Shown one piece after another: positions 1,384 to 60,722 of a stretch of 64,000 nucleotides of DNA. Under the pieces are notes generated by a model. It was not told the origin of the DNA. It searched no databases and saw only the letters and a list, made by a program, of their open reading frames with translations. The translations under genes were made by a program, and so were the position numbers. Every line of letters starts with the position of its first letter. The first letter of the stretch is position 1. The DNA lies in the NCBI RefSeq assembly GCF_023101085.1, contig NZ_CP064703.1, positions 6,944,001 to 7,008,000 on the forward strand, written 5' to 3'. The DNA is from Bradyrhizobium sp. 170. Lineage in GTDB: Bacteria; Pseudomonadota; Alphaproteobacteria; Rhizobiales; Xanthobacteraceae.

Positions 1384-1477
1384 AATTTCCCTACGTGCCG
1401 CTCTTGTTACCCATGCGATTGCAGTTGCTTCGTGACGACGGTTGACACCAACCGGGGCGCGGTTCAGGGAGGGAAAT

Positions 1478-4177
1478 TTGCTCCAGCAGAACCGGACGCC
1501 GGCTCGCGTGATCAGCTCCGAGGGTGCCTTGTCCGCCCGCGATACCACAGAGCCTGAAGCCCAATTCACACTCGGCCAAGTCATCGGTAGAATCGCCAGT
1601 TTGTTCCCGCATCAGCCTGCGATCGTCTCTGCCACATTTGCGCCTCTGACGTACCGCGATCTTCAGCGCCAGTTGGACGGCATCCGCCAACAGTTGCGTT
1701 TGGCTGGGTTCGATTGCAACGCCCGGATCGGGGTACTCATGCCGAACGGCGCGGACGCGGTTCTCACCATCGTGGCAACAGCCTGCTGCAGCATCGCGGT
1801 TCCACTTGATCCTCGGCTGTCCCACGTCGAGATCGATCAGCGTCTCGACATGCTGCGCCTGAACGCTCTTCTCGTGCCGCAAGGCAATGCCTCTGAAGCT
1901 CGCCAGGCTGCTGAGCGGAGAAGGCTCGCCATCATCGAAGCCGCTCCGGTCGGACACGGTCAGCTTGGACTCAATATCTCAGTGCAGGTCTCCAACTCCC
2001 CGGCGATCGACGCTGAACCTGATCCAGGCTCGCCCGCCTTCATCCTGCAGACGTCGGGCACGACCGCGCAGCCAAAGCTCATTCCGTTCAGTCATAGCAA
2101 TATGCTGGCCGCGGCCGCACGGCTTCAGGCCTGGTTCGGCCTCACACACTGGGACCGTTGCCTGAGCGTGTCGTCCCCTTACTATTCCCATGGACTCAAA
2201 GTAACGGTCTTCACACCACTGCTGACGGGCGGCAGCATTGCCGTTCCGGCGAACAGTGTCGTCGTGGCGCTGGATGAGTGGCTCGATATCCTGCGGCCGA
2301 CGTGGTACTCGGCAGGTCCTACGCTTCACACTGCCGTGCTGGACAAGGCAGAATACCTTGAGGATGCGCCGACGGCGCACACTCTGCGGTTCGTCGTATC
2401 GGGTGGCGCGCCGCTGCTGAAGGAGGTGCAGGACGACCTGCAGCGCATTTTGGGCGTGCCGGTGCTGGAGCATTACGGCTCCAGCGAAGCCGCCCAGATC
2501 GCCGCCAACCTGCCGCCGCCCGGGCCGAACAGGCCAGGGACTTGCGGGCAACCTTGGCCTGATACCGTGGTCATTGTTGGTGAGGATGGACATCCCTTGC
2601 CAGCTGGCGAGCGAGGCGAGGTCTGGGTTCGTGGTCCCACCGTGATGTCTGGCTATCTCGATGCGCCGGAACTCAATCAAGCTGCCTTCAGAGAGGACTG
2701 GTTTCGCACGGGCGATATCGGCAGCCTCGACGGAGATGGCTTCCTGTCCCTGCACGGCCGCCTCAGTGAAATAATCAACCGCGGCGGCGAGAAGATCGCC
2801 CCGGCTGAGATCGAATCCGCGCTACTACGCCATCCAGCCATAGCCGAAGCTGCTGCTTTCGCAATCGCCCATCCACGACTTGGCGATGACGTCGCAGCCG
2901 CCGTCATTCCACATCCTGGCGTGCAGACGACGCCTGCGGAGCTACGACAGTTCCTGCAACGCGAGTTGGCCTCGTTCAAGATTCCGCGGCACATTCTGTT
3001 CCTCGACCAGCTGCCAAAGGGGGCGACGGGAAAGGTCCAACGGCGACGGCTGCGCGAGTCGCTCGACGGGCTGCTAGGTCAGGGGGCGATGCCCCTGCCT
3101 GCTGTGAACAGCGGGCCATTGGATCTGGAGGCTGAATTGCTGAGCCTATGGCGAAGGCTGCTCAAGTCCGAGGCTGTGACGGTCGACGATGATTTTTTTG
3201 CTAGCGGTGGTGATTCCCTTCTGGCGATGGAAATGCTCATCGAGGTCGAGCGGCTCGTCGGCCACCCCGTATTGGAAACGATCCTGTTCGGGGCAGAAAC
3301 AATCCGGCAACTTGCTCCCAGAATCGCCTTGCAGACGGGCACGCCAGCAACGCCGTTCTTCCAGTTCCGTGCCTGTGGCGATCGACCTCCCCTGTACTTC
3401 TTCAACGGGGACCTCGTCAGCGGCCATTCGTGTATGCGGCGGATGGTGGAGCTTTTCGGGCCCGATTACCCGATCATCTCCATCAATCCCCATGGTCTTC
3501 GTGGGGAGCCGATTCCGCCGTCGATCGAGGAGATGGCCGCCGACCGCCTGCCGCTTATCCTGGAGAGGCAGACCAGCGGTCCGTTCCTTCTGGGCGGCAA
3601 ATGCAACGGCGCCATGGTGGCGTTCGAAACAGCCCGCCTGCTGATGGCAGCCGGCCACAAGGTTGATATGGTTGCGATGGTCGACCCGCCGACTGTCTGT
3701 GCCCGTCCGGTGCCGCGGGCGATCATAGGGCTGATGAAGCCCATAGTTTCGCCTTACCTTTCGCGCTGGACGTTTGAAGTGTTGGCCGGGCTGGAGCGGT
3801 TCTTCAAGGCGAAGGCGAGCAAGCAGACTGCGATCGCCAAGCTATATAACGCTTTATCCAATCCCAATAATGAGATTCCGCCCGCGTTATGGGACGCTTA
3901 TTCCATCGCAATGTCGCAATATCTTCCCGCACCGCTCGAGCTGCCCGTGACCTTTTACGCAGCCGACCACGACGGTCGGGCGTGGTGGCATCTCAGTTCT
4001 CAACTCGAAGTGGTCCAGGTGCCTGGGGGACATTGTGGCTCCCTGACGATCGGCGCGGAACTGCTGGTTGATCATCTGCGGCAAAGGATTGACGGCCTGG
4101 CTGACGGCGCGCCTCGATCAATGAAACCGCACACGTCGCCTGACTATGCACCAAGAGTTGTGGAAGGGCGCGCCTAG
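1478..4177 (+). CDS. Acyl-AMP ligase / carrier protein / thioesterase tri-domain protein
   Basis: An NRPS-like protein of about 899 residues. The N-terminal 525 residues are an adenylate-forming domain: A3 core QTSGTTAQPK, A7 FRTGDIG, A8 INRGGEKIAPAEIE and the A10 lysine in GATGKVQRRR. The HGL motif after the fourth core is typical of acyl- or oxalyl-CoA ligases rather than amino-acid A domains. A carrier domain follows (DDDFFASGGDSLLAME, Ser580 for phosphopantetheine). The C-terminal alpha/beta-hydrolase thioesterase has Cys709 in GGKCNG where Ser is usual, with Asp830 or Asp832 and His852 (GGHCGS) as likely partners. I chose TTG at 1478 because GGGAGGGAAA lies just upstream; TTG at 1442 is the longer alternative. 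It probably loads a carboxylic acid for the cluster; the substrate is unknown. Confidence 0.88.
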   Translation: MLQQNRTPARVISSEGALSARDTTEPEAQFTLGQVIGRIASLFPHQPAIVSATFAPLTYRDLQRQLDGIRQQLRLAGFDCNARIGVLMPNGADAVLTIVATACCSIAVPLDPRLSHVEIDQRLDMLRLNALLVPQGNASEARQAAERRRLAIIEAAPVGHGQLGLNISVQVSNSPAIDAEPDPGSPAFILQTSGTTAQPKLIPFSHSNMLAAAARLQAWFGLTHWDRCLSVSSPYYSHGLKVTVFTPLLTGGSIAVPANSVVVALDEWLDILRPTWYSAGPTLHTAVLDKAEYLEDAPTAHTLRFVVSGGAPLLKEVQDDLQRILGVPVLEHYGSSEAAQIAANLPPPGPNRPGTCGQPWPDTVVIVGEDGHPLPAGERGEVWVRGPTVMSGYLDAPELNQAAFREDWFRTGDIGSLDGDGFLSLHGRLSEIINRGGEKIAPAEIESALLRHPAIAEAAAFAIAHPRLGDDVAAAVIPHPGVQTTPAELRQFLQRELASFKIPRHILFLDQLPKGATGKVQRRRLRESLDGLLGQGAMPLPAVNSGPLDLEAELLSLWRRLLKSEAVTVDDDFFASGGDSLLAMEMLIEVERLVGHPVLETILFGAETIRQLAPRIALQTGTPATPFFQFRACGDRPPLYFFNGDLVSGHSCMRRMVELFGPDYPIISINPHGLRGEPIPPSIEEMAADRLPLILERQTSGPFLLGGKCNGAMVAFETARLLMAAGHKVDMVAMVDPPTVCARPVPRAIIGLMKPIVSPYLSRWTFEVLAGLERFFKAKASKQTAIAKLYNALSNPNNEIPPALWDAYSIAMSQYLPAPLELPVTFYAADHDGRAWWHLSSQLEVVQVPGGHCGSLTIGAELLVDHLRQRIDGLADGAPRSMKPHTSPDYAPRVVEGRA

Positions 4178-4600: not shown

Positions 4601-5767
4601 ATGCCTGAGAGGATCATCGATGTCAGCCTGGAGAACCTGAAGAGCATTGCGTGGCTAGAAACCTCGTGGAAAGAACTCGAAGCGCGGGTGAGTCACTCGT
4701 TCTTTTTGTCTTGGCTCTGGATCGGCACGTGGCTACGGCATCTCCCGGATGACGCGCAACCACACGTCCTCGTCGCTCGGTCGTCAAGCAAGATCGTTGG
4801 CTTGGCGATTATTTGCAGGCGGAGAGCGTGGAGTCTCGGGCTGCATGCGCGGGCACGTTGGCTACTCAATGAAACAGGCGATACTCGCTTCGACCGATTG
4901 TTCATCGAGTACAATAATATTCTTGCAGAGCAATCCGATGCCGTTGTAGCGGCAGGTCTCGATGCGTTGACGTCCCGCTTGCGCCGCTCGGATCAGTTAG
5001 TGCTCTCCGGAATTGGTCCGGACCTTGAGTTGGCCGCGTGTCGCGCCGCAGGCCGGGTTGGGCTCGTTACCGAGGTGAAACAGGCTGATGCGGCACTGTG
5101 GGTTGATTTCGCCAAAGTCCGCCAGCAAGGGGGGAATTATCACGCCACATTGGGCCGCAGTACTCGCCAGGCCGTGAGCCGTGCCATGCGGTTGTATACC
5201 GAACGTGGTCCCGTTGAACTTCGGATCATGGAAACGACAACGGAGGCCCTCGCCGCGTTCGATTTGCTGAGCGACTTTCATCGGTCGCGATGGGGACGCA
5301 GGGGGGCCTTCGCCAATCCGGGCTTCCGTCCGTTTCACGAGGAGCTAATTGCGCGCGGAGTCCCCATGGGGGGCGTCCGCATCTCACGGACGCTGGCTGG
5401 GGACCAGACAATTGGGGTCGTGTACAATTTCGTACATGACGGTCGTGTCCTTAACTACCAAAGCGGCTTTCTCTATGAGAGCGATGGCCGACTCAAGCCC
5501 GGGCTTGTCAGCCATGTGCTGGCTATTGAGGACAGCATCGCACGCGGGGAACGCAGCTACGACTTCCTGGCCGGTGGCGGTGGGCACAAGTCCCGTCTGG
5601 CCAATAGGGAGCATCCCATGAAGTGGATCGCAATAGGCAGAGACAGTCCAGAGCGCCGCATCGAGGCCAAGCTCCGCAGTGGCAAGCGGATGCTACGAAC
5701 GATTGCTACGGATCTTCTAGAAAAGAAGCTACGGCGCCGTATTCCGTATTTGGGGGCTAGTTCCTAG
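4601..5767 (+). CDS. CelD/BcsL-family GNAT acyl- or aminoacyl-transferase
   Basis: A protein of 388 residues with the layout of the CelD/BcsL (FemAB-like) GNAT family. An N-terminal half begins with the aromatic FFLSWLWIGTWLRHL block. The C-terminal GNAT half has RSTRQAVSRAMR, the acceptor strand around FHRSRWGRRGAF, and LNYQSGFLYESDGRLKPG leading into the family signature YDFLAGGGGHKSRL. Members occur in EPS and capsule clusters and transfer acyl or aminoacyl groups. Between a carrier-linked ligase and a phosphopantetheinyl transferase it could move a carrier-bound acyl group onto an amine, replacing the condensation domain this cluster lacks. That role is inference. The start is ATG at 4601; the ribosome site is weak. 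Confidence 0.8.
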   Translation: MPERIIDVSLENLKSIAWLETSWKELEARVSHSFFLSWLWIGTWLRHLPDDAQPHVLVARSSSKIVGLAIICRRRAWSLGLHARARWLLNETGDTRFDRLFIEYNNILAEQSDAVVAAGLDALTSRLRRSDQLVLSGIGPDLELAACRAAGRVGLVTEVKQADAALWVDFAKVRQQGGNYHATLGRSTRQAVSRAMRLYTERGPVELRIMETTTEALAAFDLLSDFHRSRWGRRGAFANPGFRPFHEELIARGVPMGGVRISRTLAGDQTIGVVYNFVHDGRVLNYQSGFLYESDGRLKPGLVSHVLAIEDSIARGERSYDFLAGGGGHKSRLANREHPMKWIAIGRDSPERRIEAKLRSGKRMLRTIATDLLEKKLRRRIPYLGASS

Positions 5768-5927: not shown

Positions 5928-6024
5928 TCAATCAGCAATCCGCTCGAGTGCCCACCCATGACCGTTCCCAATCTACCGGTGGCAATCTGCCAGATCGAGC
6001 TTGGGTTAATAGGAAGTAGTTGTG

Positions 6025-6843
6025 ATGGCTGCTCGCATCAGAGCCTGTGAACAGAGCGACAGCGATAATGGTCGTTCGTCTGGCGCAAGAGGAGAGGAAG
6101 TGGTGTTCTGTCCCGATGATCGGGCTGTCACGCATTCGCAGTTGAGCGCCTTCAGACAACGGTGCGAGCCCTGGACGGAGCAGCTCTCGAGCTTTTTGGA
6201 TAAAACAGTCGAGCTGAGACCCGGGATCATAATGCCGGTTTTCGAGAATGATGGTTTGGAGGTCCTGGCATTCATGCTCGATGCGGAGCAGGACGTCATC
6301 CGTGAGATAGGCGTTTGCCTCAACGAAGAGGAACGTCGTCGCGCCGAGGGGTTGAGACTGGAGCGGGACCGCCGCCGCTTCGTCGCTACCCGGGGGCAGC
6401 TTCGCCGGGTCCTCGCTTCTAAACTGGGAATCTCGCCGTCCGACGTCGAACTAGAATATGGACGCCTCGGCAAACCTCACCTCTCGCACCGCATGCCTGG
6501 TCGCGATTTGCGCTTCAGTGTCTCACGATCCGGAGATGTCGCGGTCGTCGCCCACTCGACCAGGCAAGAGGTCGGGGTGGACATCGAGGCAGTTCTCCCT
6601 GTGCCGGAAGCGGACGAGATCGCCGCGCTCTGCTTTTCCGCCTCCGACTATGGGTCTTATACCGCCCTTGGTCCGGAAGACCGGCTGGAGGGCTTCCTCG
6701 GGCGCTGGACCCGGCTGGAGGCTATCTCTAAGGCCCTGGGGTGCGGCTTAGGACAGCCCCTTTCCTGGGATGAAAGGGATTGGACTGTCCGTAGGTTCGT
6801 ACCGAAATCTGGGTACATCGGGACCGTGGTAGTCCGGAAATGA
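6025..6843 (+). CDS. 4'-phosphopantetheinyl transferase, Sfp type
   Basis: A 272-residue enzyme that would transfer phosphopantetheine from CoA to the carrier-protein serines of the flanking ligase and NRPS proteins. Family signatures are visible in order: RRRFVATRGQLRRVLA, GRLGKPHL, FSVSRSGDVAVVA (usual FNxSHS), the magnesium-site GVDIEAV and WTRLEAISKALGCGL, the usual WTxKEAxxKxxGxG. The Lys of WTxKEA is Leu here, but the metal-binding Glu is kept. The start is ATG 6025 with AGGAAG 8 nt upstream; GTG at 6022 is in frame. Location inside the cluster strongly suggests that the carrier domains are used in vivo. Confidence 0.9.
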   Translation: MAARIRACEQSDSDNGRSSGARGEEVVFCPDDRAVTHSQLSAFRQRCEPWTEQLSSFLDKTVELRPGIIMPVFENDGLEVLAFMLDAEQDVIREIGVCLNEEERRRAEGLRLERDRRRFVATRGQLRRVLASKLGISPSDVELEYGRLGKPHLSHRMPGRDLRFSVSRSGDVAVVAHSTRQEVGVDIEAVLPVPEADEIAALCFSASDYGSYTALGPEDRLEGFLGRWTRLEAISKALGCGLGQPLSWDERDWTVRRFVPKSGYIGTVVVRK

Positions 6844-6889
6844 ATGGTAGCCGGAATTGATGTTTCCGCGATGGCGCACGGAGCAAGAG

Positions 6890-7945
6890 ATGGCAGTTTC
6901 ATCTATGAAAAGCCCTATATCAGCGGACTTGACGCAGGTTTCGGAGCTTTTCGCAGGCCTCGCGGCCAAGGACATCAAGGTCTGGGTAGAGGGAGACCGG
7001 CTGCGGTGCAACGCCCCAGCTGGCGCACTGACGGCGGAGTTTCGCGACCAGTTGCGGGACCGGAAGGGCGAGATCATCGCGTTTCTGAATATGGCCACGG
7101 CGGCGGCCCGGCAACAGCCTGCCATTATTCCCCTGCAGTCTCGCGGAACACGCACGCCGATTTACGCCGTAGCCGGGCATGTCGGGGCGCCCTTCACATT
7201 CTCGGACCTGTCGAAGCACCTGGGCGACGATCAGCCGTTTTACGCACTCCAACCGTCCGGCTGGGATGGGCGGAGCGAGCCGATGGACCGCGTCGAAGAT
7301 ATCGCCGAGTACTTCGCCCGTCAGATCGTCGAATGCCAGCCCACCGGTCCGTACATCATCGCCGGTTTCTGCTCTGGCGCTGCAACCGCTTTCGAACTGG
7401 CGAAAATCCTGGGTCAACGCGGAGCGGAGGTCCCATGCATAGCGCTCTTTGGCCCTCTTCACCCCACCACCTATAGGGAATTGCCGCGTCTGCTGTATTT
7501 CCTTGCTAGGCGTAGCGTCTATCCGCACCTGCAGGAGATGGCGAAGCTGCCGACATTCGGCGCCCGTCTCCGATATTTCGGCGGTCGCCTCCGGAATCTC
7601 GGCGAGCGCGTCCGCGCCCTCGTGACCCGCGTTCGCAAAAGCAAAGAGCCCGTCACTGCGGATCCGGTGCTGGCGAGCAGAGCTCGACTCAAATCCACGG
7701 CGATCACGGCTTTCCGGCGGTACATTCCCACTCCGTATTCGGGTCGAGTATGCATTTTCCTTCCGAACAAGGCCTGGCTGCGATCTGGTGCAGCACCGCT
7801 CCGATGGCTTCGAGTGGTGCCCCATGCCGAATTTTATTTCGGGCCCGAGGACTGCAACGGTTCGCTTATGCTGGAGGAACCGGATGCACCTGCCATCGCA
7901 GAGCTTTATCGCCAGGCGACCCAAAAGGCTGAACGATTGACGTGA
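6890..7945 (+). CDS. Thioesterase with N-terminal TubC docking domain
   Basis: About 351 residues. The first 65 form a TubC-type docking domain (LFAGLAAKDIKVWVEGDRLR to KGEIIAFL), the small fold that lets NRPS subunits recognise each other. Residues 80-340 are a thioesterase alpha/beta-hydrolase. Its nucleophile elbow is GFCSGA, with Cys161 in place of Ser. Where the catalytic His is expected near the C-terminus the sequence reads FGPEDCNGSLMLEEP, with no His. So the domain is either a divergent acyl-transferring enzyme or a binding/editing protein. I chose ATG 6890 because GGAGCAAGAG precedes it; ATG 6860 is in frame. It lies 46 nt after the phosphopantetheinyl transferase and 36 nt before the NRPS, so probably one operon. 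Confidence 0.82.
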   Translation: MAVSSMKSPISADLTQVSELFAGLAAKDIKVWVEGDRLRCNAPAGALTAEFRDQLRDRKGEIIAFLNMATAAARQQPAIIPLQSRGTRTPIYAVAGHVGAPFTFSDLSKHLGDDQPFYALQPSGWDGRSEPMDRVEDIAEYFARQIVECQPTGPYIIAGFCSGAATAFELAKILGQRGAEVPCIALFGPLHPTTYRELPRLLYFLARRSVYPHLQEMAKLPTFGARLRYFGGRLRNLGERVRALVTRVRKSKEPVTADPVLASRARLKSTAITAFRRYIPTPYSGRVCIFLPNKAWLRSGAAPLRWLRVVPHAEFYFGPEDCNGSLMLEEPDAPAIAELYRQATQKAERLT

Positions 7946-7981
7946 TTTGATTTTTTGATTTCCGCAATGGGAGCGTATCTC

Positions 7982-10957
7982 ATGAATGAAGTCCTACCTA
8001 TCGCGGCGGAGGGCGTAGCGCGTCCCCTGCTGAAAGATGCCGATCATCAAGCGCTGGTTGTCGAGTACAACGCCACGGCAGCGCCCTACCCGTCGGACAG
8101 GACGATCGTCGATCTCTTCCGCGACCAAGCGACGCGTAGTCCTGACGCTGAAGCGATCCGCTTCGGCGATGCAACACTGACGTACCAGCAGCTCAATGAA
8201 CGCTCCAACCAGATGGCCGCGCATCTGAGCTCGACCGGCGTAGGGCCGGGTCGGATTGCCGTTGTGTTCATGGAGCACTCCGTTGAAGTCGTCGTCGCGA
8301 TCTTAGGCGTCCTGAAGTCCGGCGCAGCCTATGTGCCGGTGGATGCGGCAACGCCGAAGGGGCGTCTCGCAACAATCCTGAAGGACATTGCCAACGGGAC
8401 CGACGAGCAGGCGCCGGTGGCGATCACTCAGGCGCGCCTGCAATCCGTCATTTCCCCGAACCTTGCCGACATTTTCGTGCTCGACGCCGATTTCGGGTCG
8501 ATTCTGAAACAGCCGGACTCGGACCGACCGTCCGCTGCCACTCCGGACGGCGCCGCCTATATCATCTTCACCTCCGGCTCGACCGGCACGCCCAAAGGGG
8601 TCGTGATCGAGCACCGGAACTTGGTGAACTACATTTGGTGGGCCGCTCGGATGTACAGTTCCGGCGAACGTCTCGCATGGCCCCTTTTCTCATCCCTCGC
8701 CTTCGACCTGACCGTCACGACGCTCTTCACGCCACTCATCACCGGCGGCCGCATCGTGGTCTATCTTGGTGATCCCGGAATCCAGAGCATGGTCGTGCTC
8801 AAGGTCATCGACGATAATGCCGTCGATATCATGAAGCTGACGCCGGCGCATCTCGCGATGATCCGCGACCGCAATCTTGAGACCACAAGGCTGCGTAAGT
8901 TCATCGTGGGGGGCGAGGACTTCAAGACCGAGTTGGCTCGCGATATCACGAAAGCCATCCCTCATCCCATCGAGATCTACAACGAGTACGGACCAACCGA
9001 GGCCACTGTGGGCTGCATGATTCACCGTTTCGACATCGACCGGGATCAATCCGCATCGGTGCCGATCGGCGTTCCGGCCGCCAATGCGGGCGTCTACGTC
9101 CTCAACAAGGCACATCAGCCCACCGCCCCCGGCGTCATCGGTGAGATGTTCATTGCCGGCGACGGTCTCGCGAGAGGCTATTTCAATCGCCCTGACCTGA
9201 CCGACGAACGTTTCCTCACGGCCACCGATCCCCGAGATGGATTTTCGAAGCTGCAGCTGTACAAGACGGGCGATCTCGCCCGCTGGAACTCGGAGGGACG
9301 CCTGGACTTTCTCGGCCGCGCCGATCATCAGGTGAAGGTTGGTGGCGCGCGTGTCGAGCTGGGCGAGATCGAAGCGCGGCTTCTGAGGCACCCGCACGTT
9401 CAGGAATGCGCAGTCGCTGCCATCGCCACCTCGGTGGCGAAGCCAGCGACACAACTGCGCTATTGCGAACGGTGCGGTGTCGCATCCGACCTGCCCGGCA
9501 CGACGTTCGATGCGGCAGGCGTCTGCAATCTATGCCGGGCCTTCGACACCTATGTCGACAAGGCGCAGACCTATTTCAAGACATCGGATGACCTCCAGGT
9601 TCTCATCGCGGAGATGCAGGCTAACCGGAAGGGACCTTACGATTGCATCGTGCTGTTGAGCGGCGGCAAAGACAGCAGTTTTATGCTGTGCAAGCTCGTC
9701 GCAATGGGGGTGAAGCCGCTCACCTTCACCCTCGACAATGGTTTCATTTCCGAAGGAGCCAAGGCCAATATCAGGCGGCTCGTAAAGTCCCTCGGCGTGG
9801 ATCACCACTGGGGAAGCACGCCGCATATGAACGAGATCTTCGTCGACAGCCTGAAACGGTTCGCGAACGTCTGCAACGGTTGCTTCAAAACGATCTACAC
9901 CCTGGCCACGAACGTCGCCCGCGAACGAGGGATCGGGTACATCGTGACGGGGTTGTCCCGCGGCCAATTCTTTGAGACGCGCCTGACTGAGGAGGTCTTC
10001 AAGCGGGACGACTACGATCCGGCCCGCTTGGACGCACTCATCGCCGAGGCGCGCAAGGAGTATCACCGCCGCGAGGATGCTGTTTCGCGCTATCTTAACG
10101 TGGATGCGTTCCGGAGCGACTCAGTATTCGAGGAAGTAAAGTTCATCGACTTCTACCGCTACTGGAGCGTCCCTCTGGAGGACATGCTCGACTTCCTGAA
10201 GACGCAGGCAGGATGGGACCGGCCTGCGGATACAGGACGCTCCACGAACTGCCTCATCAACGATGTCGGCATCTACGTTCATAAGAAGCAGCGGGGATAT
10301 CACAACTACGCTCTTCCCTACAGCTGGGATGTACGTCTTGGCCAGAAGACGCGCGACGAAGCCGTTGACGAACTCAACGACGAGCTGGACGTACCCCGCA
10401 TCAAGGAGATTATGGCCCAGATCGGCTATGTCGAACCGCCAGCGGCCGAAGACGGTATCGCACGACTTGTGGCCTACTATGTCTCGTCGAAACCCCTTAC
10501 CGTGGCCGACCTGCGCACCCACCTCGCCGAAGAACTCTTTGAGTCCATGATTCCGACGCACTATGTTCGCCTCGAACGGATGCCGCTCACGTCCAACGGC
10601 AAGATCGACCGCTCCGCGCTTCCCGAGCCGACGGCGGAAAACATCCAGCCTGCACAAGACTTCGTCGCCCCCTCGACGGAAACCGAGAAGACGCTGGCCG
10701 CGCTGTGGTGCGATCTCCTGAAGGTTGAGTCGATCGGCCGTCACGACAACTTTTTCGGCCTGGGCGGGCAGTCGCTCCTGGTGATGCGGGCGGTGTCGCG
10801 CATGCGGGAGACCTTCGGCGTCGACGTGCAGCTTCGCAACCTCTTCGAGCGCCCGACAGTGGCCGGACTGGCGGAAGTGATCGACGGAATGCTCTGGGTG
10901 GCCGATTCCAGAGCCCCTTCAGTCTCGGAAGGACCGAGAGAGGAAATCGAACTCTAG
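7982..10957 (+). CDS. Single-module NRPS: asparagine-type adenylation domain interrupted by a PP-loop domain, plus carrier
   Basis: A 991-residue protein. Residues 45-485 are an amino-acid adenylation domain (TSGSTGTPKG near 197; NEYGPTEATVG; YKTGDLARW; VKVGGARVELGEIE). Aligning cores 4-5 to GrsA by eye gives the specificity residues D-L-T-K-I-G-E-V-G-K, one change from the published asparagine code. Between A8 and A10 sits a foreign block (about 486-828) with two CxxC pairs (Cys495/498, 515/518), the PP-loop SGGKDS at 560-565 and CNGC at 631-634. It resembles N-acetyl-sugar amidotransferases of the WbpG/PseA/LegX type. A10 resumes with Lys874 (SNGKID) and the carrier has Ser931 (GLGGQSLL). 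There is no condensation domain. ATG 7982 has GGGAG upstream; TTG 7955 and ATG 7967 are alternatives. Confidence 0.92.
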   Translation: MNEVLPIAAEGVARPLLKDADHQALVVEYNATAAPYPSDRTIVDLFRDQATRSPDAEAIRFGDATLTYQQLNERSNQMAAHLSSTGVGPGRIAVVFMEHSVEVVVAILGVLKSGAAYVPVDAATPKGRLATILKDIANGTDEQAPVAITQARLQSVISPNLADIFVLDADFGSILKQPDSDRPSAATPDGAAYIIFTSGSTGTPKGVVIEHRNLVNYIWWAARMYSSGERLAWPLFSSLAFDLTVTTLFTPLITGGRIVVYLGDPGIQSMVVLKVIDDNAVDIMKLTPAHLAMIRDRNLETTRLRKFIVGGEDFKTELARDITKAIPHPIEIYNEYGPTEATVGCMIHRFDIDRDQSASVPIGVPAANAGVYVLNKAHQPTAPGVIGEMFIAGDGLARGYFNRPDLTDERFLTATDPRDGFSKLQLYKTGDLARWNSEGRLDFLGRADHQVKVGGARVELGEIEARLLRHPHVQECAVAAIATSVAKPATQLRYCERCGVASDLPGTTFDAAGVCNLCRAFDTYVDKAQTYFKTSDDLQVLIAEMQANRKGPYDCIVLLSGGKDSSFMLCKLVAMGVKPLTFTLDNGFISEGAKANIRRLVKSLGVDHHWGSTPHMNEIFVDSLKRFANVCNGCFKTIYTLATNVARERGIGYIVTGLSRGQFFETRLTEEVFKRDDYDPARLDALIAEARKEYHRREDAVSRYLNVDAFRSDSVFEEVKFIDFYRYWSVPLEDMLDFLKTQAGWDRPADTGRSTNCLINDVGIYVHKKQRGYHNYALPYSWDVRLGQKTRDEAVDELNDELDVPRIKEIMAQIGYVEPPAAEDGIARLVAYYVSSKPLTVADLRTHLAEELFESMIPTHYVRLERMPLTSNGKIDRSALPEPTAENIQPAQDFVAPSTETEKTLAALWCDLLKVESIGRHDNFFGLGGQSLLVMRAVSRMRETFGVDVQLRNLFERPTVAGLAEVIDGMLWVADSRAPSVSEGPREEIEL

Positions 10958-11039: not shown

Positions 11040-12212
11040 ATGATGGACAAAGCTTGGGTACCGGCGCGAGGACCGGGGCTGCCTTGGGCGGCGGGGGAGT
11101 ATGAGCTCTTACGCGACCAGGTGCGCCGGTTCGTCGAGGAAGAGATCAAGCCCCGTGCGGACCGCTGGGAGGAAGACGGGTTCATTCCCCGTCCGATCCT
11201 ACGCCGCATGGGCGAACTCGGCTTCTTCGGCATCCGCTACCCGGCCGAGTACGGTGGTGCCGAGATGGACGCGACCGCATCCACGATCTTCGCCGAGGAG
11301 CTCGGGCGCTCGACCTATGGCGGCGTCGCCATCGCGACGCTGGTCCATACCGACATGGCTTCCGTGCATGTCTTTCACGACGGGACCAAAGCCCAGCGGG
11401 CCCGCTGGATGCCGGGCATTATCAGCGGCGAGGTGATCACCGCGATCGCCATCACGGAGCCGGATGCAGGCTCGGACGTGAAGGCCATTTGCACGCGCGC
11501 CCGCCGAGAGGGCGACTCTTACGTCCTCGACGGCACGAAGCTCTATATCACGAACGGCGTCCACGCGGATCTCTACTGCGTCGCCGCCAAGACCGATCCC
11601 TCGGCAGGAAGCCACGGGATCACGATGTTCCTCGTCGAGAAGGGTACGCCAGGCTTCAGCGTCGCCCGCGAGCTGGACAAGCACGGCTGGCGCTCCTCCG
11701 ATACCGCGGAGCTCGTCTTCGACGGTTGCCGTATCCCCGCCGAGAACGTGCTCGGCGCTGAGGGACTGGGCTTCTACTCTATCATGCGCAACTTCCAGAA
11801 CGAGCGCCTTGTCCTCGCCGGCATGGCGATAGGGGCGGCCGAGGCGGCGATCGATATGACCCTTGCCTGGGTGAAAGCTCGCCGCGCATTCGGGGGCGTC
11901 CTATGGGACATGCAGGCGATCCGTGAACGTCTCGCGATGCTCTCTGCAAAGGTAGAGGCAGGCCGCCAGTTTCTCTATGCCACCGCCTGGCGCATGGCGG
12001 CGGACGAAGATTGCCTGCGCGAGGTCTCGATGGTGAAGGCCATCTGCGGCGAACTCGTCAACGAGGTTATGTATACGTGCGTGCAGTTCCATGGCGCCAT
12101 GGGCTTGATGCGCGAGAGCCCGATCGAGCGCATGGCGCGTGACGCCCGCGTCCTATCCATCGGCGGCGGCGCGACGGAGGTGATGCTGGAGGTGGTCGCG
12201 TCGATGTCGTGA
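11040..12212 (+). CDS. Acyl-CoA-dehydrogenase-like flavoenzyme
   Basis: A 390-residue protein of normal acyl-CoA dehydrogenase length, with FAD-binding signatures AITEPDAGSD and DGTKLYITNG, and the C-terminal QFHGAMGLMRESPIERMARD. The usual base in the YEGT motif is absent (IGGGATEVM). A Glu at 255 in NFQNERLVLAG matches the alternative base position of isovaleryl- and long-chain-type enzymes, so activity is plausible. In thiotemplate clusters such enzymes desaturate carrier-bound acyl or aminoacyl groups. Here it lies 82 nt after the A-carrier protein on the same strand, so a carrier-bound asparagine derivative is a reasonable substrate (inference). ATG codons lie at 11040 and 11043. Confidence 0.88.
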   Translation: MMDKAWVPARGPGLPWAAGEYELLRDQVRRFVEEEIKPRADRWEEDGFIPRPILRRMGELGFFGIRYPAEYGGAEMDATASTIFAEELGRSTYGGVAIATLVHTDMASVHVFHDGTKAQRARWMPGIISGEVITAIAITEPDAGSDVKAICTRARREGDSYVLDGTKLYITNGVHADLYCVAAKTDPSAGSHGITMFLVEKGTPGFSVARELDKHGWRSSDTAELVFDGCRIPAENVLGAEGLGFYSIMRNFQNERLVLAGMAIGAAEAAIDMTLAWVKARRAFGGVLWDMQAIRERLAMLSAKVEAGRQFLYATAWRMAADEDCLREVSMVKAICGELVNEVMYTCVQFHGAMGLMRESPIERMARDARVLSIGGGATEVMLEVVASMS

Positions 12213-12560: not shown

Positions 12561-14228
12561 TCAAACGTTATCAATGGCCTGAATGTGTATACCTTTCACT
12601 GCCCTTCCAGATGGGTCATCCATGCTCGCAAATTGTTGAGACCAGAGAAACGCGGTCGGCGTGGAGCACGCGATCGAGGGACCGATGGGGACAGTCAGGC
12701 AGGCTGTCGGATTCTTGAAAATGCCATCAAAGATGGTCCTGTAGAAGTATCCTTCTTTGGAAGTCGGCGTTTGCTGCGGAAAGCGCTTGCTAGCCTCTGC
12801 GAGCATCTGATCCGAGACTTTATTCTCGGCATGATGCCTCAAGCCCTCAATCCAGCTGTACCCCACTCCGTCGGAAAACTGCTCCTTTTGACGCCACAAG
12901 ATCTCCTGCGGCAACAGATCGCTAAATGCTTCCCGCAATATGCCCTTCTCGATTTTCGCGCCAGGGCACATTTTCTCGGCGGGGTTTATCGACATCGCGT
13001 AATCTAAGAACTCCTTGTCCAGGAAGGGCACACGGGCTTCGACTCCCCACGCAGCTGTTGCCTTGTTCGCACGACAGCAATCATACCTGCTGAGTGCAAA
13101 GAGCTTTCGGACAGTCTCCTCGTGGAATTCTTCTGCTGATGGTGCCATGTGGAAGTAGAGATAGCCGCCAAATACTTCGTCAGCGCCTTCTCCGGACAAC
13201 ACCATTTTGATGCCCATTGCTTTTATTTTACGCGCCATGAGGTACATCGGCGTGCCGGCACGAATGGTGGTGACATCAAAGGTCTCCAGGTGCCGGATCA
13301 CATCTGGCAATGCGTCCAATCCTTCCTGTACAGTGAAAACAACCTCATGATGGACCGTGCCGATGTGAGCCGCCGCGTTTCGCGCATACTTCATGTCAGG
13401 TGAGTTTTCCAGGCCGACGGAGAACGAGTGTAGTCTTGGCCACCATGCTTCTTCGGTCTCTCCAGACTCGATCCGCCTGAAGCGGTGGCGTGCCGCGAGC
13501 GCCGCGATGAGGGAAGAGTCGAGCCCACCAGAAATAAGTACCCCGTAAGGCACATCGCACATCATTTGCTGCTTGACCGCAGCTTCGAGCGAAGTTCGGA
13601 GCTCGTGCAAGGACACCTTCTTGGTTGGGAGTGTATGCGCCCACTGTGGATCATACCACCTGACGAACTGTCCGTCTTTGCCGCTGTAGTAATGTCCCGG
13701 CGGAAATTCCTCGATCGTCTCGCATACGAGATCGAGAGCTTTCATTTCGCTCGCGACGTAAGTTGCGCCGTCGCCGCCCCATCCGATGTAAAGTGGAACT
13801 ATGCCGATGTGGTCTCGGGCGACGAAGAAATCGCCACTGCGTTCGTCGAAGAGGGCAAATGCAAAAATGCCACTCAGCATATTGCATAAAGCTGATCCGT
13901 ACTCGTCGTAGAGATACAAGATAATTTCGCAGTCTGATTTCGTTCTCCAGACGTGCGGCAGCTTCAGTGTGTCGCGCAAAGCGACATGATTGTAGATCTC
14001 TCCGTTCACAGCCAAAGCCCGACCCGCGGTAACGTCGAGAAGGGGTTGGGCGCCGTGCTCCACGTCGACAATGGAAAGGCGTTCGTGCGCCAGTATTGCG
14101 CACTCGCTGGAGTAAATGCCGCTCCAGTCTGGCCCGCGGTGTCTGACTGTCTTTGCCATCTCGAGAGCCCGGCTGCGTGCCGACTCAAGCGGTTCGGTAA
14201 ATCCGAAGATGCCAACGAAGCCGCACAA
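12561..14228 (-). CDS. asnB: Asparagine synthetase (glutamine-hydrolysing)
   Basis: A 555-residue protein, the length of classical AsnB. The N-terminal glutaminase has the catalytic Cys2 (MCGFVGIFG), RHRGPDWSG, HERLSIVDVEHGAQPL and VNGEIYNH. The synthetase half has the PP-loop LISGGLDSSLIAA and SGEGADEVFGGYLYF. It makes Asn from Asp, Gln and ATP. It is convergent with the NRPS cluster, whose adenylation domain is predicted here to use asparagine. It could therefore feed that pathway, or amidate a pathway intermediate. Two longer AsnB-like genes at 31747 and 40671 belong to the EPS section. Confidence 0.93.
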   Translation of the reverse strand: MCGFVGIFGFTEPLESARSRALEMAKTVRHRGPDWSGIYSSECAILAHERLSIVDVEHGAQPLLDVTAGRALAVNGEIYNHVALRDTLKLPHVWRTKSDCEIILYLYDEYGSALCNMLSGIFAFALFDERSGDFFVARDHIGIVPLYIGWGGDGATYVASEMKALDLVCETIEEFPPGHYYSGKDGQFVRWYDPQWAHTLPTKKVSLHELRTSLEAAVKQQMMCDVPYGVLISGGLDSSLIAALAARHRFRRIESGETEEAWWPRLHSFSVGLENSPDMKYARNAAAHIGTVHHEVVFTVQEGLDALPDVIRHLETFDVTTIRAGTPMYLMARKIKAMGIKMVLSGEGADEVFGGYLYFHMAPSAEEFHEETVRKLFALSRYDCCRANKATAAWGVEARVPFLDKEFLDYAMSINPAEKMCPGAKIEKGILREAFSDLLPQEILWRQKEQFSDGVGYSWIEGLRHHAENKVSDQMLAEASKRFPQQTPTSKEGYFYRTIFDGIFKNPTACLTVPIGPSIACSTPTAFLWSQQFASMDDPSGRAVKGIHIQAIDNV

Positions 14229-15082: not shown

Positions 15083-16516
15083 CTACCGCTCCCGCAAGGA
15101 CTCCTGCTTGTATCTTGCCAGCGGAGAGAGGAGATAGCTGATGATGGTTCGCGAGCCGGTCTTGATTTCGACCGTCACGGCCATTCCAGGCCCAAGCTTG
15201 ACGAGTTTCTCATCTACCTGCATGGCCGCGCGGTCGAGCGAGATGCGAGCGGCATACTCCAGTTCCTGACCTTTCGGCTCGCTGCTGTTCGTCGCCGCGC
15301 CCATGGCCCGATCATTCGAAGTGCCCTGTTGCCTGTCGCGGGTGATCGCGTCAGACGAAACGCTGAGCACGTCGCCATGAAGAAGCCCATAGCGCGTGAA
15401 GTTAAATGTATCGATCTTGATCTCCGCTTTTTGTCCCGGATGCACGAAGCCGATGTCGCGGTTGGAAAGCATGGCCTCGATCTCGAGCTGGCTCTCGCTC
15501 GGAACCAGCACGGCGAGTGCCTGAGCAGGCGTCACCACGCCTCCCACGGTATGAATGGCGAGCTGTTGCACGACGCCGTCGACAGGCGCGACCAAACGCT
15601 GGAGTTTCGTGCGCCGTTCTGCCTTGATCACCTCCTGCGCAGCGCTCGCGGTTTTCTGCTCGGCTTTCGCGAGTGCGTCATAGGTCGAGCGCCGGTACTC
15701 CGCGGCGGTCCTTTCCCTCGTTTCCTTCAGCAACGCTGTGGCTGCATCGGCTTCGCGCAGCCGGCTCTGCTGCAGGAGGAGGTCCTGCTGAAGGCCGACC
15801 AGCTCCTGGTATTCGGAGAGATAGACGACCTTCGAAGCCAGTGCCTTGTCGACCAGGTTCTTGCGGATATCCACGCGTTCCTGCAGCACCGGTATCGTCG
15901 CCTGCAGCTTCGCGACGCTCGCCGAAGTGGTCGCTCGCTCCGCTTCTTTCTGGCCCTGCTGGCGTTCGATCTCGGCGAGCTTGGCATTCTGTTCGGCGCG
16001 CTGGCTGATCAGGAACTGACGATGCATCTCGACCTCCGCGGCGCTTGCGCTCTGCGGCGGCCGGAAGGCGGCAAGCGGATCCTCTGCGAGCCCGGCGCGC
16101 AGCCGGGCGACTTCGAGTTCGGCCGCGAGGAAATCGCTCTTCTGGCGTTCGTTGTCGGCTTCCGTCATCGTCGGATCGAGTTCGATAAGAACGTCGCCAG
16201 CCTTTACGGTCTGCCCGTCGCGGACGTGGATGGCGCGGACGACGCCCGTCTCGAACGGCTGGATCAGCTTGGTGCGCCCGCCGGGCACGATCTTGCCGGT
16301 CGCGGAGGCGACGATATCGACGCTGCCGAATGTCGCCCACAGTAGCGCGAAGCAGAAGACCACGATGATGCTGGCGCCGATCGCGCGTCCGATCGGCGAC
16401 GGCGGCGTTTCAGTGATCTCGAGCGCCGCCGGCAGGAACGCGATTTCGTGCTCGCGGCGGCGAGCCGGGGCGGGAGGTTTCGGAAACGGGACGATGTTTC
16501 GGCTAGCGGACGTCAT
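15083..16516 (-). CDS. Type I secretion periplasmic adaptor, HlyD family
   Basis: A 477-residue membrane fusion protein. A short cytoplasmic N-terminus is followed by one membrane helix (IGASIIVVFCFALLWATFG, about 43-63). Then comes the first half of the lipoyl domain (VIELDP), a long coiled-coil hairpin with SEYQELVGLQQDLLLQQSRL, and the second lipoyl half VAPVDGVVQQLAIHTVGGVV. The C-terminal beta-barrel contains RYGLLHGDVLSVSSDA and GMAVTVEIKTGSRTI. It overlaps the ABC transporter gene by 14 nt and would bridge that transporter to a TolC-like outer membrane channel, which is not in the window. A decayed relative lies at 26134-26865. Confidence 0.93.
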   Translation of the reverse strand: MTSASRNIVPFPKPPAPARRREHEIAFLPAALEITETPPSPIGRAIGASIIVVFCFALLWATFGSVDIVASATGKIVPGGRTKLIQPFETGVVRAIHVRDGQTVKAGDVLIELDPTMTEADNERQKSDFLAAELEVARLRAGLAEDPLAAFRPPQSASAAEVEMHRQFLISQRAEQNAKLAEIERQQGQKEAERATTSASVAKLQATIPVLQERVDIRKNLVDKALASKVVYLSEYQELVGLQQDLLLQQSRLREADAATALLKETRERTAAEYRRSTYDALAKAEQKTASAAQEVIKAERRTKLQRLVAPVDGVVQQLAIHTVGGVVTPAQALAVLVPSESQLEIEAMLSNRDIGFVHPGQKAEIKIDTFNFTRYGLLHGDVLSVSSDAITRDRQQGTSNDRAMGAATNSSEPKGQELEYAARISLDRAAMQVDEKLVKLGPGMAVTVEIKTGSRTIISYLLSPLARYKQESLRER

Positions 16517-31746: not shown

Positions 31747-33648
31747 ATGTGCGGGATTTTTGGCTGGATACTCCGAGGAGAGCACCGGCAAGATTACGAA
31801 ACTCTTGTCCGCCTCACCAACCTTATGAATCATAGGGGCCCCGACGGCTCGGGATATTGGCAGGCCGATACTGCGGGCGGGCGCCATCAAATCAGCTTTG
31901 GGCATCGGCGCCTCTCCATCATCGATGTCGAGGGCGGAACCCAGCCCATGTGGAGCGCTGATGGCTCTATCGCTCTCATCTTCAACGGAGAGATCTACAA
32001 TTATGTTGAGCTGCGCGATGAGCTCATCGCGCTCGGTCATGTTTTTCGCACGTCCTCCGACACGGAAGTGCTAATCGAAGCCTATCGCGCTTGGGGACTC
32101 GATTCGATTAGACGTTTCCGCGGCATGTTCGCTTTCGGATTGTGGGATGCGACGGCCCAACACCTCGTCCTGGGGCGCGACCCGTTTGGCAAGAAGCCAC
32201 TGTTCGTAGCCGAGAAATCAGGCCTCCTGTTCGCCTCAGAAATCGAGCCACTCCTCCAGTTTCCAGGCGTGGATCGCCTTATCGATCCACATGCAGTCGA
32301 GCAATATCTTCTCAATCGCTATGTGCCCGGCCCCGGGACATTTTTTCGCGCTGTGCGTAAGCTTCCACCCGGTTGCTATTTGGTGTGGGGCGAAGGTCGC
32401 ACGAACATTACCCGGTATTTCACACCACCGTTGGCGTCGGTAGAGCCAGACATCACAGATTTCGACGAAGCGGTTGGGATGTTCAAGGAGACCTTCGATG
32501 ATGCCGTACGCATCCGCATGCGGAGCGACGTTTCGTTTGGAGCCTACCTGTCCGGCGGCATCGATTCGTCTGCAGTCGTCGCTGCAATGGTCCGTCATAG
32601 TTCTGAGCGCGTACGCACTTTCTCAGTGGGCTTTCGTGAAGCTGCCTACTCCGAGCTCGATCACGCCCGCACCATCGCTCGCCAATTCGACACGAATCAC
32701 GAGGAACTCGTTCTGGAGCCGCACGACTTTTTGAAGAGCTGGCCGGCCGCCATCCTGCGTCGCGGCGCGCCTGTAGCCGAAACGGCTGACATTCCAATTA
32801 TGATGCTGTCGCATATGGCGGCAAGCAAGGTGAAAATGGTCCTCACCGGAGAAGGAGCGGACGAACTGTTGGGCGGCTATCCCAAGCATCGAGCCGAGTT
32901 GTGGATCGCGCTCTATCAGAGACTGGTGCCCCGGATCATTCATGACCGCATCATATCGCCCGTCATGCACGCACTTCCGTACGATATGCGTCGCGTCAAG
33001 ACCCTGACTACCGCAGCGGGCGAGCGGGATTGGCCGAGCCGGATGCAACTCTGGTTTGGCGGTGTCTCTATGAACGAGCGGGATCGGATTTTCGGACGTT
33101 CACTACCCATGACGCCGCCTGATCCCCATCCGTTTTCGATCCGCATCGGATCCAATGTTCGGCGTACGCTGTTCTTCGATCAGACGTCGTGGCTACCTGA
33201 CAATCTCCTTGAACGTGGCGATCGAATGATGATGGCAGGTTCGATTGAGGGCAGGATGCCATTTATGGACACTATTCTTGCCAAGCTTGTTGCACGGTTT
33301 CCGGACAATTTCCTGGTCGGCCGTGGGGGCGGCAAGTCAGTATTGCGAACCGCGATGGAGCACACGCTGCCGCCAGGGATTCTGACGCGCAAGAAAATCG
33401 GATTTCGCGTGCCGATTGAGGAGTGGTTTCGGGGTCCGTATCACGAATTTGTTGCCGATTTATTGCTCTGCGAGAGTGCGTGTGTGGCAACCTTCTGCAA
33501 CAGAGTTATCTTGAAGCGCCTGGTCCACGAGCATCTCGCCCGCCGTCAGAACCATGAAAAGATGCTTTGGTCCCTGCTCAACCTGGAGATGTTTCTGCGT
33601 ACCTTCAAGCCGTCAGGTCTGGAAAATTTAGCAATTGGGCGCGCATGA
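31747..33648 (+). CDS. asnB: AsnB-like glutamine amidotransferase
   Basis: A 633-residue protein, longer than biosynthetic AsnB and similar in length to AsnO/AsnH-type proteins of surface-polysaccharide loci. The glutaminase domain has Cys2 (MCGIFGWIL), MNHRGPDGSGYW, FGHRRLSIIDVEGG and FNGEIYNY. The synthetase domain has the PP-loop AYLSGGIDSSAVVAA, LTGEGADELLGGY and LERGDRMMMA. In EPS clusters such proteins often amidate uronic acids or other carboxyl groups rather than free aspartate. The convergent neighbours are PssE/PssD, which in known rhizobia handle glucuronate, so uronamide formation is a plausible role (inference). Confidence 0.9.
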   Translation: MCGIFGWILRGEHRQDYETLVRLTNLMNHRGPDGSGYWQADTAGGRHQISFGHRRLSIIDVEGGTQPMWSADGSIALIFNGEIYNYVELRDELIALGHVFRTSSDTEVLIEAYRAWGLDSIRRFRGMFAFGLWDATAQHLVLGRDPFGKKPLFVAEKSGLLFASEIEPLLQFPGVDRLIDPHAVEQYLLNRYVPGPGTFFRAVRKLPPGCYLVWGEGRTNITRYFTPPLASVEPDITDFDEAVGMFKETFDDAVRIRMRSDVSFGAYLSGGIDSSAVVAAMVRHSSERVRTFSVGFREAAYSELDHARTIARQFDTNHEELVLEPHDFLKSWPAAILRRGAPVAETADIPIMMLSHMAASKVKMVLTGEGADELLGGYPKHRAELWIALYQRLVPRIIHDRIISPVMHALPYDMRRVKTLTTAAGERDWPSRMQLWFGGVSMNERDRIFGRSLPMTPPDPHPFSIRIGSNVRRTLFFDQTSWLPDNLLERGDRMMMAGSIEGRMPFMDTILAKLVARFPDNFLVGRGGGKSVLRTAMEHTLPPGILTRKKIGFRVPIEEWFRGPYHEFVADLLLCESACVATFCNRVILKRLVHEHLARRQNHEKMLWSLLNLEMFLRTFKPSGLENLAIGRA

Positions 33649-51275: not shown

Positions 51276-51386
51276 CGCGTGGTGGCCAAGGCGGAGCATC
51301 TGCCGAAGGGCGCCAATCCGCGCTTCATCGTGACCTCGCTCGCACGCGAGTCCGTTGCAGCACGGGAGCTTTATGAGACAATTTAG
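51276..51386 (+). pseudogene. IS1380-family transposase fragment
   Basis: RVVAKAEHLPKGANPRFIVT, then SLARESVAARELYET and a stop. This matches the conserved second half of IS1380-family transposases, just before the YCARGEMENRIKE motif, which is absent. The break at ELYET coincides with the left end of the inverted 2-kb duplication. Confidence 0.75.
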
Positions 51387-60527: not shown

Positions 60528-60722
60528 GCCGAATAATCAAGAGGACAGATCTGGCGAACATAGTGAAGAAGGCGGTGAGCGCCCGCAGCGCCAATGAGGA
60601 AACAGAACGTTGGTTTTGCGGATGGTCTGTTGGGACGGTCTGCTCCAACGGGGGACAGATTTGAACGATTTCACGGGATGAGCACGTTGGTGATGACCAC
60701 GTTGGTACAGAGAGTTTCCGCC

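What the first reader, a model, noticed from the sequence alone, without database searches (positions are those of the whole stretch)
9440..10465. PP-loop CxxC domain inserted into an NRPS adenylation domain
Between A8 and A10 the NRPS carries about 340 extra residues with CxxC, CNLC, SGGKDS and CNGC motifs, resembling N-acetyl-sugar amidotransferases and PP-loop sulfurtransferases. Known interrupted A domains usually hold methyltransferase or oxygenase inserts. A PP-loop insert could adenylate a carbonyl on the carrier-bound substrate and install nitrogen (amidine) or sulfur (thioamide). This is the strongest candidate for an undescribed chemistry.
Basis: partly seen in the sequence, partly recalled or inferred. 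Interest (0 to 1): 0.9.

Follow-up and report, generated by a model that had tools for sequence, protein, structure and literature searches.

The report
Asparagine-modifying insert in peptide synthetase
A soil bacterium's peptide-making enzyme carries an extra ATP-using domain inside its asparagine-loading part; it matches a published type of insert that turns bound asparagine into a nitrile or rearranges it, here in a small gene cassette whose product is unknown.

Summary
The frame 7955-10957 is an A-T NRPS module whose A domain is split after A8 by about 346 residues with a PP-loop fold.

The A domain reads as Asn, as do 153 of 154 complete codes of insert-bearing relatives. AlbIV (albicidin) has this code and a 342-aa AANH insert (PMC12283262). 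CysH (cystobactamid) has a 38-kDa AMDH insert with SGGKD that dehydrates carrier-bound Asn to beta-cyanoalanine in vitro; its authors found homologues only inside Asn A domains (PMC7966384).

Amidine formation is disfavoured: no HisH/HisF homologue in 45 loci, against 13 of 20 true amidotransferase loci.

New: all 44 inserts examined keep a CxxC...C triad like [4Fe-4S] PP-loop thiolases (1 of 20 true amidotransferases). CysH was reported dark brown, with no radical-SAM Fe-S motif found and the mechanism called unknown; the triad is a candidate explanation. A four-gene cassette without condensation domain recurs in two phyla.

The parts
7982..10957 (+). NRPS gene: A(Asn)[PP-loop insert]-T, 991 aa from the likely ATG start (open frame from 7955)
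8117..9184 (+). AMP-binding part of the adenylation domain (residues 55-410), code DLTKIGEVG read as Asn
   Evidence: code listed among Asp/Asn codes in PMC12283262 passages
9455..10429 (+). inserted PP-loop (AANH) domain, AMDH type, 325-residue core
9464..9535 (+). tetracysteine C..C ... C..C, zinc site in the solved N-acetyl-sugar amidotransferase
   Evidence: zinc from PMC10607449 passages
9659..9676 (+). PP-loop SGGKDS, ATP site
9872..9883 (+). C-x-x-C of the putative [4Fe-4S] triad (CNGC)
10250..10252 (+). third cysteine of the triad
10454..10603 (+). A-domain C-terminal piece resuming after the insert; A10 NGKID at its end
10691..10882 (+). carrier (T) domain, PP-binding
6022..6843 (+). 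phosphopantetheinyl transferase, cassette gene
6857..7945 (+). TubC_N docking domain plus thioesterase with a Cys in the nucleophile motif (GFCSG), cassette gene
11040..12212 (+). acyl-CoA dehydrogenase family protein, cassette gene
12561..14228 (-). asparagine synthase B (825 bits, over the 499 cut-off); possible Asn supply, link not shown
1442..4177 (+). acyl-AMP ligase-carrier-thioesterase protein; accessory, of 16 records compared shared only with L002 (93%)
4601..5767 (+). GNAT (Acetyltransf_6) protein, accessory; of 16 records also in L002, L003 and a 25% match in L015

Best explanation
The insert is an AMDH-type (aminomutase/amide dehydratase) PP-loop domain of the CysH/AlbIV kind. The A domain activates L-Asn and loads it on the module's own T domain. 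The insert then uses ATP to activate the side-chain amide of the bound Asn; loss of the activated oxygen gives carrier-bound beta-cyano-L-alanine, and an alternative outcome known from CysH is rearrangement to isoasparagine. A metal centre on the CxxC...C triad, probably a [4Fe-4S] cluster, may take part. In this locus the product would be handed on or released by the thioesterase-like protein and could be desaturated by the acyl-CoA dehydrogenase homologue. Shown here: architecture, fold, Asn code, conservation, gene cassette. Shown by others for CysH: Asn loading, dehydration, need of the domain for isoasparagine, brown colour. Inferred: that this homologue does the same, activation by adenylation, the cluster, and the roles of the neighbours.
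For: Asn code in 153 of 154 complete codes of insert-bearing A domains (of 283 proteins, 128 too short to read and one partly read and agreeing); the CysH authors likewise found AMDH homologues all inside Asn-type A domains. In the locus set 41 of 42 insert-bearing A domains are Asn-type, while 49 insert-less AMP-binding domains there (acyl-AMP ligases included) give 33 different nine-letter codes; the one Asn code among the 49 is L042, where an in-frame stop separates A part and insert. Insert size and place match AlbIV's 342-aa AANH insertion with the same code and CysH's 38-kDa domain, with SGGKD, in a stand-alone A-T module. CysH with Asn shifts from +114 to +96 in vitro, and CysH without AMDH only loads Asn (passages read). 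PP-loop fold at high confidence. No condensation domain found in the 64-kb window with two queries, so the side-chain carboxamide is the only amide on the carrier unless another enzyme acylates it. CysH is dark brown, as a cluster on the conserved triad would make it. No HisH/HisF partner.
Against: No direct sequence comparison with CysH or AlbIV (record not held). The cassette with an acyl-CoA dehydrogenase homologue is not the cystobactamid one ('dehydrogenase' does not occur in the CysH paper's main text), so the outcome may differ. The closest solved fold is an amidotransferase, not a dehydratase. The window and L002 also have possible acylating genes (1442-4177, 4601-5767), so the carrier-bound group may be N-acyl-Asn. 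The CysH authors found no CxxCxxxC motif and left the metal open.
Confidence: 0.82

Rival explanations
1. In-cis thioamide synthetase: the PP-loop adenylates the Asn side-chain amide and a [4Fe-4S] cluster held by CxxC...C delivers sulfide, giving carrier-bound thioasparagine, as CtaC does in trans on carrier-bound backbone amides.
Against: CysH, of the same architecture, gives the mass of a nitrile. The triad also occurs in 10 of 10 CongE/OzmP-like proteins aligned, whose proposed reaction is oxazole formation without sulfur. No sulfur donor among the 25 families displayed (of 87) for 70 neighbours scanned, though the closthioamide cluster lacks a sulfur-mobilising enzyme too.
Confidence: 0.08
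2. Cyclodehydratase: the activated amide is attacked by a group of the same carrier-bound chain, forming a ring that the acyl-CoA dehydrogenase homologue oxidises, by analogy with CongE/OzmP.
For: PP-loop proteins that are CongE/OzmP-like by context sit beside A-T modules, 12 of 12 A domains read there having Gly-type codes (formyltransferase-A-T and KS context annotated in L059 only), and share the triad. PMC4504003 proposes ATP-dependent amide activation for CongE. An acyl-CoA dehydrogenase homologue lies in at least 25 of 45 loci.
Against: CongE's reaction is itself a proposal, and no CongE sequence was compared here. CysH gives an open-chain product. With free Asn on the carrier the possible rings lack precedent that I know of.
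Confidence: 0.05
3. Amidine formation with ammonia, as in N-acetyl-sugar amidotransferases.
For: Best family and fold match; shared tetracysteine, 44 of 44 and 20 of 20.
Against: Score under the family cut-off; no HisH/HisF homologue in 45 NRPS loci against 13 of 20 amidotransferase loci, which hold about 1.5 kb each side or less; cysteine triad differs.
Confidence: 0.03
4. A degenerate, structural insert without catalysis.
For: One distant relative, L052, has SGGKGS and another A code.
Against: Each ATP-site and cysteine residue checked is kept in 43 or 44 of 44 inserts; mean pairwise identity of inserts (0.565) exceeds that of their A parts (0.435).
Confidence: 0.02

Closest known systems
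CysH AMDH domain (cystobactamid, Cystobacter velatus Cbv34)
   Same: 38-kDa insert with SGGKD in the A domain of a stand-alone A(Asn)-T module; homologues reported only in Asn A domains (PMC7966384 passages)
   Different: CysH works with an oxygenase, an O-methyltransferase and the shuttle CysB; here the recurrent partners are a PPTase, a thioesterase and an acyl-CoA dehydrogenase homologue. Sequence identity not measured.
AlbIV A domain (albicidin)
   Same: Code DLTKIGEVG(K), 342-aa AANH insertion, Asn to beta-cyanoalanine suggested in situ (PMC12283262 passages)
   Different: Other pathway; sequence not compared.
N-acetyl sugar amidotransferase (TIGR03573; LpNASAT 8WEX)
   Different: No triad cysteines in the 8WEX alignment nor in 19 of 20 members; HisH/HisF near 13 of 20; insert below the family cut-off
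CtaC and TtuA/NcsA/LarE [4Fe-4S] PP-loop thiolases
   Same: PP-loop core; CxxC seen aligned in mmLarE; CtaC triad of like spacing
   Different: Stand-alone sulfur-transfer enzymes; the mmLarE match does not extend to the tetracysteine; CtaC (sequence not seen here) acts on backbone amides
CongE/OzmP (conglobatin, oxazolomycin)
   Same: SGGKDS protein serving a Gly A-T module; CongE-like proteins by context share the triad
   Different: Acts in trans; proposed cyclodehydratase
ArtA nitrile synthetase (9LEI)
   Different: Argininosuccinate-synthetase-like, stand-alone

Membership tests
AMDH-interrupted Asn A domain (CysH/AlbIV) | Insert between A8 and A9/A10 of an A domain | tested here: met
AMDH-interrupted Asn A domain (CysH/AlbIV) | Insert of about 340 aa, AANH superfamily with SGGKD motif | tested here: met
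   about 346 residues between 487 and 834; SGGKDS; PP-loop fold
AMDH-interrupted Asn A domain (CysH/AlbIV) | A domain specific for Asn, code DLTKIGEVG | tested here: met
   by code only, no loading assay
AMDH-interrupted Asn A domain (CysH/AlbIV) | Stand-alone A-T module | tested here: met
   no C domain in the protein or, by two tblastn queries, in the window
AMDH-interrupted Asn A domain (CysH/AlbIV) | Sequence homology to CysH or AlbIV | not tested
   CysH record not held; AlbIV not fetched
AMDH-interrupted Asn A domain (CysH/AlbIV) | Dehydrates or isomerises carrier-bound Asn | not testable with these tools
   needs protein mass spectrometry
N-acetyl sugar amidotransferase TIGR03573 | Score over the family cut-off (203.2 bits) | tested here: not met
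   141.4 and 144.9 bits
N-acetyl sugar amidotransferase TIGR03573 | Tetracysteine and PP-loop | tested here: met
N-acetyl sugar amidotransferase TIGR03573 | HisH/HisF ammonia-supplying partners nearby | tested here: not met
   0 of 45 loci; control 13 of 20
[4Fe-4S] PP-loop thiolase (CtaC, TtuA, NcsA, LarE) | CxxC...C cluster ligands | tested here: met
   44 of 44 inserts by sequence position; geometry not measured
[4Fe-4S] PP-loop thiolase (CtaC, TtuA, NcsA, LarE) | Bound Fe-S cluster and sulfur transfer | not testable with these tools
   needs anaerobic biochemistry
CongE/OzmP | Stand-alone protein beside a formyltransferase-A(Gly)-T module | tested here: not met
   fused in cis to an Asn module
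Methyltransferase- or oxidase-interrupted A domain | Methyltransferase, oxidase or ketoreductase domain in the insert | tested here: not met
   three Pfam families match the protein, none of them such; none among the 25 NCBIfam rows shown of 106

The most novel reading that the evidence does not exclude
AMDH domains as a family are [4Fe-4S]-dependent PP-loop enzymes: the CxxC...C triad explains the dark-brown CysH that its authors could not place, and Asn-to-nitrile conversion and aminomutation run through ATP activation next to a cluster. In the C-domain-less four-gene cassettes the activated Asn amide goes to a nitrile or thioamide that the acyl-CoA dehydrogenase homologue then desaturates, giving a small Asn-derived metabolite of an undescribed kind. 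(I raised the odds from 0.3 after reading of the brown colour; the cluster part alone I would put near 0.55.)
Probability: 0.4. Interest if true: 0.65.

Novelty: new member of a known kind. Interest (0 to 1): 0.45.

Why it matters
The CysH authors call the AMDH mechanism unknown, report a brown protein without a recognised Fe-S motif, and say unannotated homologues abound. The conservation found here (PP-loop, tetracysteine, CxxC...C triad, Asn code) names residues to mutate and a cofactor to assay, so an open question becomes directly testable. The compact PPTase-thioesterase-A(Asn)[AMDH]T-dehydrogenase cassette, seen in Bradyrhizobium, Mesorhizobium, Microvirga and Gemmatimonadetes records, is a simple system for finding what the domain makes. 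In 20 of 45 loci a His-type A domain (9 exact DSALIAEVW, 11 variants) lies in the same locus, pointing to Asn*-His peptides of unknown product.

Tried and rejected
Thioamide synthetase was my leading idea until; it is kept as a rival. Amidine by an amidotransferase mechanism is disfavoured. The tree puts the 44 inserts in one clade (100/100), on the side of CongE-like proteins and away from the 20 true amidotransferases (branch 100/98), with warnings of long branches; in a thinned tree of 55 rows the data did not reject inserts plus amidotransferases and three kin as one clade (AU p 0.345), so kinship among PP-loop groups is unresolved. A search for a stand-alone close relative listed mainly NRPS fragments in its 120 of 380 rows. 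The whole-protein model (mean pLDDT 81, pTM 0.54) does not fix domain placement. Paper searches showed, in their listings, no title or abstract linking a PP-loop or QueC domain with interrupted A domains; the paper that did, PMC12283262, was in the listing but was opened only for A-domain codes, so those listings were a poor test of novelty. The last protein search was meant to surface CysH by name and did not among its 120 listed rows of 2096.

Asparagine synthase as a partner: close homologues of the window's asnB lie in 3 of 45 loci (window, L002 at 96%, L011 at 59%; three more loci have roughly 30% matches), too few to conclude. Sulfur donors: of 142 nearby unclassified genes listed 70 were scanned and 25 of 87 families were displayed, so absence is not shown.

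Recalled, from no call: NRPS core-motif names, thioesterase motif lore, the ACAD reaction, and the meaning of codes other than Asn, Gly (DILQLGMIW) and His (DSALIAEVW).
Full report
Anatomy. The frame 7955-10957 encodes A-T with an insert. AMP-binding is residues 55-410, TIGR01733 76-487, the A-domain C-terminal piece 834-883, PP-binding 913-976. Between 487 and 834 lie about 346 extra residues that match TIGR03573 at 141 bits, below its cut-off of 203. A10 (NGKID) and the carrier domain follow. The closest relatives start at the equivalent of the ATG at 7982. The window lies in a 9.2-Mb single-contig genome with one copy. The two closest loci, both 99% identical, are Bradyrhizobium, and their coordinates agree with those of two genomes of the window's own genus, so I infer the genus Bradyrhizobium.

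Residues. In 44 inserts (43 loci plus the window; nine are near-copies from alphaproteobacteria) the tetracysteine, SGGK, the PP-loop Ser and a CxxC...C triad are present in all; the PP-loop Asp in 43 (L052 has Gly). In 20 proteins over the TIGR03573 cut-off, from 200 sampled genomes, the tetracysteine is in 20 and the triad in 1, L089. 8WEX shows no cysteine at the triad positions, while mmLarE, a [4Fe-4S] enzyme, has the CxxC. The spacing resembles CtaC's C154, C157, C284 (PMC6772006, parts 1 and 2 of 3 read). Against a simple sulfur reading, all 10 actinobacterial stand-alone proteins aligned that are CongE/OzmP-like by context share the triad, and the proposed reaction of CongE is an oxazole-forming cyclodehydration (PMC4504003, passages). 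Of 13 A-like places read near stand-alone relatives, 12 beside such proteins have Gly-type codes and the thirteenth, L050, gives no NRPS code. The formyltransferase-A-T plus KS context was annotated in L059 only.

Specificity. The nine-residue code of the window is DLTKIGEVG. Of 283 proteins with the insert, 128 had too short an N-terminal part, 1 was partly readable and agreed, and 153 of 154 complete codes were Asn-type; the exception is L052. As a control, 49 insert-less AMP-binding domains from the same loci, acyl-AMP ligases among them, give 33 codes; the only Asn-type one is L042, where an in-frame stop lies between A part and insert. A part and insert have co-varied (Mantel r 0.91, 41 proteins, maximum of 999 permutations 0.32) and inserts form one clade (100/100). 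PMC12283262 (passages) treats DLTKIGEVGK with the Asp/Asn codes and gives DSALIAEVWK as His and DILQLGMIWK as Gly.

Gene context. In 13 of 16 records examined (window, L001-L007, L009-L011, L015, L017) a PPTase, a thioesterase, A(Asn)[insert]T and an acyl-CoA dehydrogenase homologue lie together; L008 (thioesterase only) and L042 (PPTase and dehydrogenase) are cut by contig ends, and L012 has none of the three partners but has a condensation domain. Two condensation-domain queries found nothing in the other 15 records, the 64-kb window included. Eight outer neighbours annotated in L006, L009, L010, L015 and L017 have no evident link to such a pathway. The thioesterases of all 13 four-gene records, and of L008, have Cys in the GxCxG motif (12 of the 14 members of the thioesterase cluster, plus L007 and L010); the other two cluster members are L016 with no such motif and L020 with GYSLG. 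The window and L002 also have a FadD-carrier-thioesterase protein; the window, L002 and L003 have a GNAT, with a 25% match in L015. In L013, the one assembly line annotated domain by domain, the module carries a condensation domain. A His-type A domain lies in 20 of 45 loci (9 exact DSALIAEVW, 11 variants; in L024, L027 and L030 on the opposite strand). Neighbour clusters over 45 loci, as lower bounds: acyl-CoA dehydrogenase 25, PPTase 17, HupE/UreJ-like membrane protein 15, thioesterase 14, ornithine cyclodeaminase 7. No HisH/HisF homologue was found in the 45 loci (for the window the first 22 kb), against 13 of 20 amidotransferase loci. Of 142 nearby unclassified genes I scanned 70; no sulfur donor is among the 25 of 87 families displayed.

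What it is. PMC12283262 states that beta-cyanoalanine of albicidin is loaded by an A domain with an insertion of 342 aa probably affiliated with the AANH superfamily, suggesting that AlbIV converts Asn in situ. PMC7966384 (passages) reports that CysH, a stand-alone A-T module, carries a 38-kDa insert 69% identical to AlbIV's, named AMDH. CysH loaded with Asn shifts to the mass of beta-cyanoalanine, CysH without the domain only loads Asn, and domain deletion removes isoasparagine and cyanoalanine linkers. BLAST homologues were all inside Asn-type A domains, a core motif is SGGKD, and CysH is dark brown although no CxxCxxxC motif was found; the mechanism is left open. Place, size, superfamily, SGGKD, Asn code and A-T format match the window. 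I could not align CysH itself. I therefore file the insert as an AMDH-type domain by architecture, with the sequence test open.

Mechanism. Most likely the PP-loop activates the side-chain amide of carrier-bound Asn with ATP and elimination gives the nitrile, with aminomutation as the second known outcome. Adenylation rather than phosphorylation is inferred from the fold; the albicidin authors, as cited in PMC7966384, proposed phosphorylation. ATP-dependent amide-to-nitrile conversion by other enzymes, ArtA among them, has precedent (PMC13060819 passages). The triad suggests a cluster of the TtuA/CtaC type, and the brown colour of CysH fits; both the cluster and its role are inference. The thioesterase-like protein may act as a shuttle as CysB does (CysB resembles SyrC), and the dehydrogenase homologue may desaturate the bound product; both are inferences.

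Spread. Matches number 1884 for the window's insert and 2096 for that of a gammaproteobacterial relative, 120 listed each. In the window's genus 3 of 265 genomes, its own included, match at 99-100% identity; 47 more have only weaker matches of 40% or less, so it is a patchy accessory trait there.

Verdict. Real, well conserved, and a known kind of interrupted A domain. It is of moderate interest for its unstudied cassette and for a cofactor hypothesis that makes the AMDH mechanism testable. On checking, the confidence in AMDH type rose from 0.78 to 0.82 and the novel case from 0.3 to 0.4 because.

Noticed in passing
window 51373-53121 and 55222-56970: A perfect 1749-nt inverted repeat (100% complementary arms, plus a 266-nt pair inside at 99%) carrying two MurJ/MatE-family genes in opposite orientation with identical Pfam scores.
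   Followed up: partly
window 15083-19214 (-): HlyD-type adaptor and C39-peptidase ABC exporter side by side, suggesting type I export of a leader peptide or protein near the NRPS cassette.
   Followed up: no
window 31747-33648 and 40671-42659: Two further asparagine-synthase-like amidotransferases; a polysaccharide-export protein lies at 60594-62087.
   Followed up: no
L052:1764-2744: Clostridial insert with SGGKGS in place of SGGKDS and A code DPWMIGTIN, 32% identical: a possible change of function.
   Followed up: partly
L042:3242-3254: In a Gemmatimonadetes contig an in-frame stop lies between the A part and the insert; sequencing error or a split gene cannot be told apart.
   Followed up: no
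L089: The one protein over the TIGR03573 cut-off (329 bits) with the CxxC...C triad; it is also not among those with a HisH/HisF neighbour.
   Followed up: no
L056-L077 (Streptomyces, Frankia, Actinacidiphila): CongE/OzmP-like (by context) stand-alone PP-loop proteins carry the CxxC...C triad; the words iron and Fe-S do not occur in the conglobatin paper's main text.
   Followed up: partly
L013-L055 assembly lines, e.g. L013:4609-14447: Recurrent acyl-AMP ligase, acyl-CoA dehydrogenase homologue, Asn[insert] module and His-type module, with HupE/UreJ-like and ornithine-cyclodeaminase genes in some: possibly a family of metal-binding lipopeptides.
   Followed up: partly
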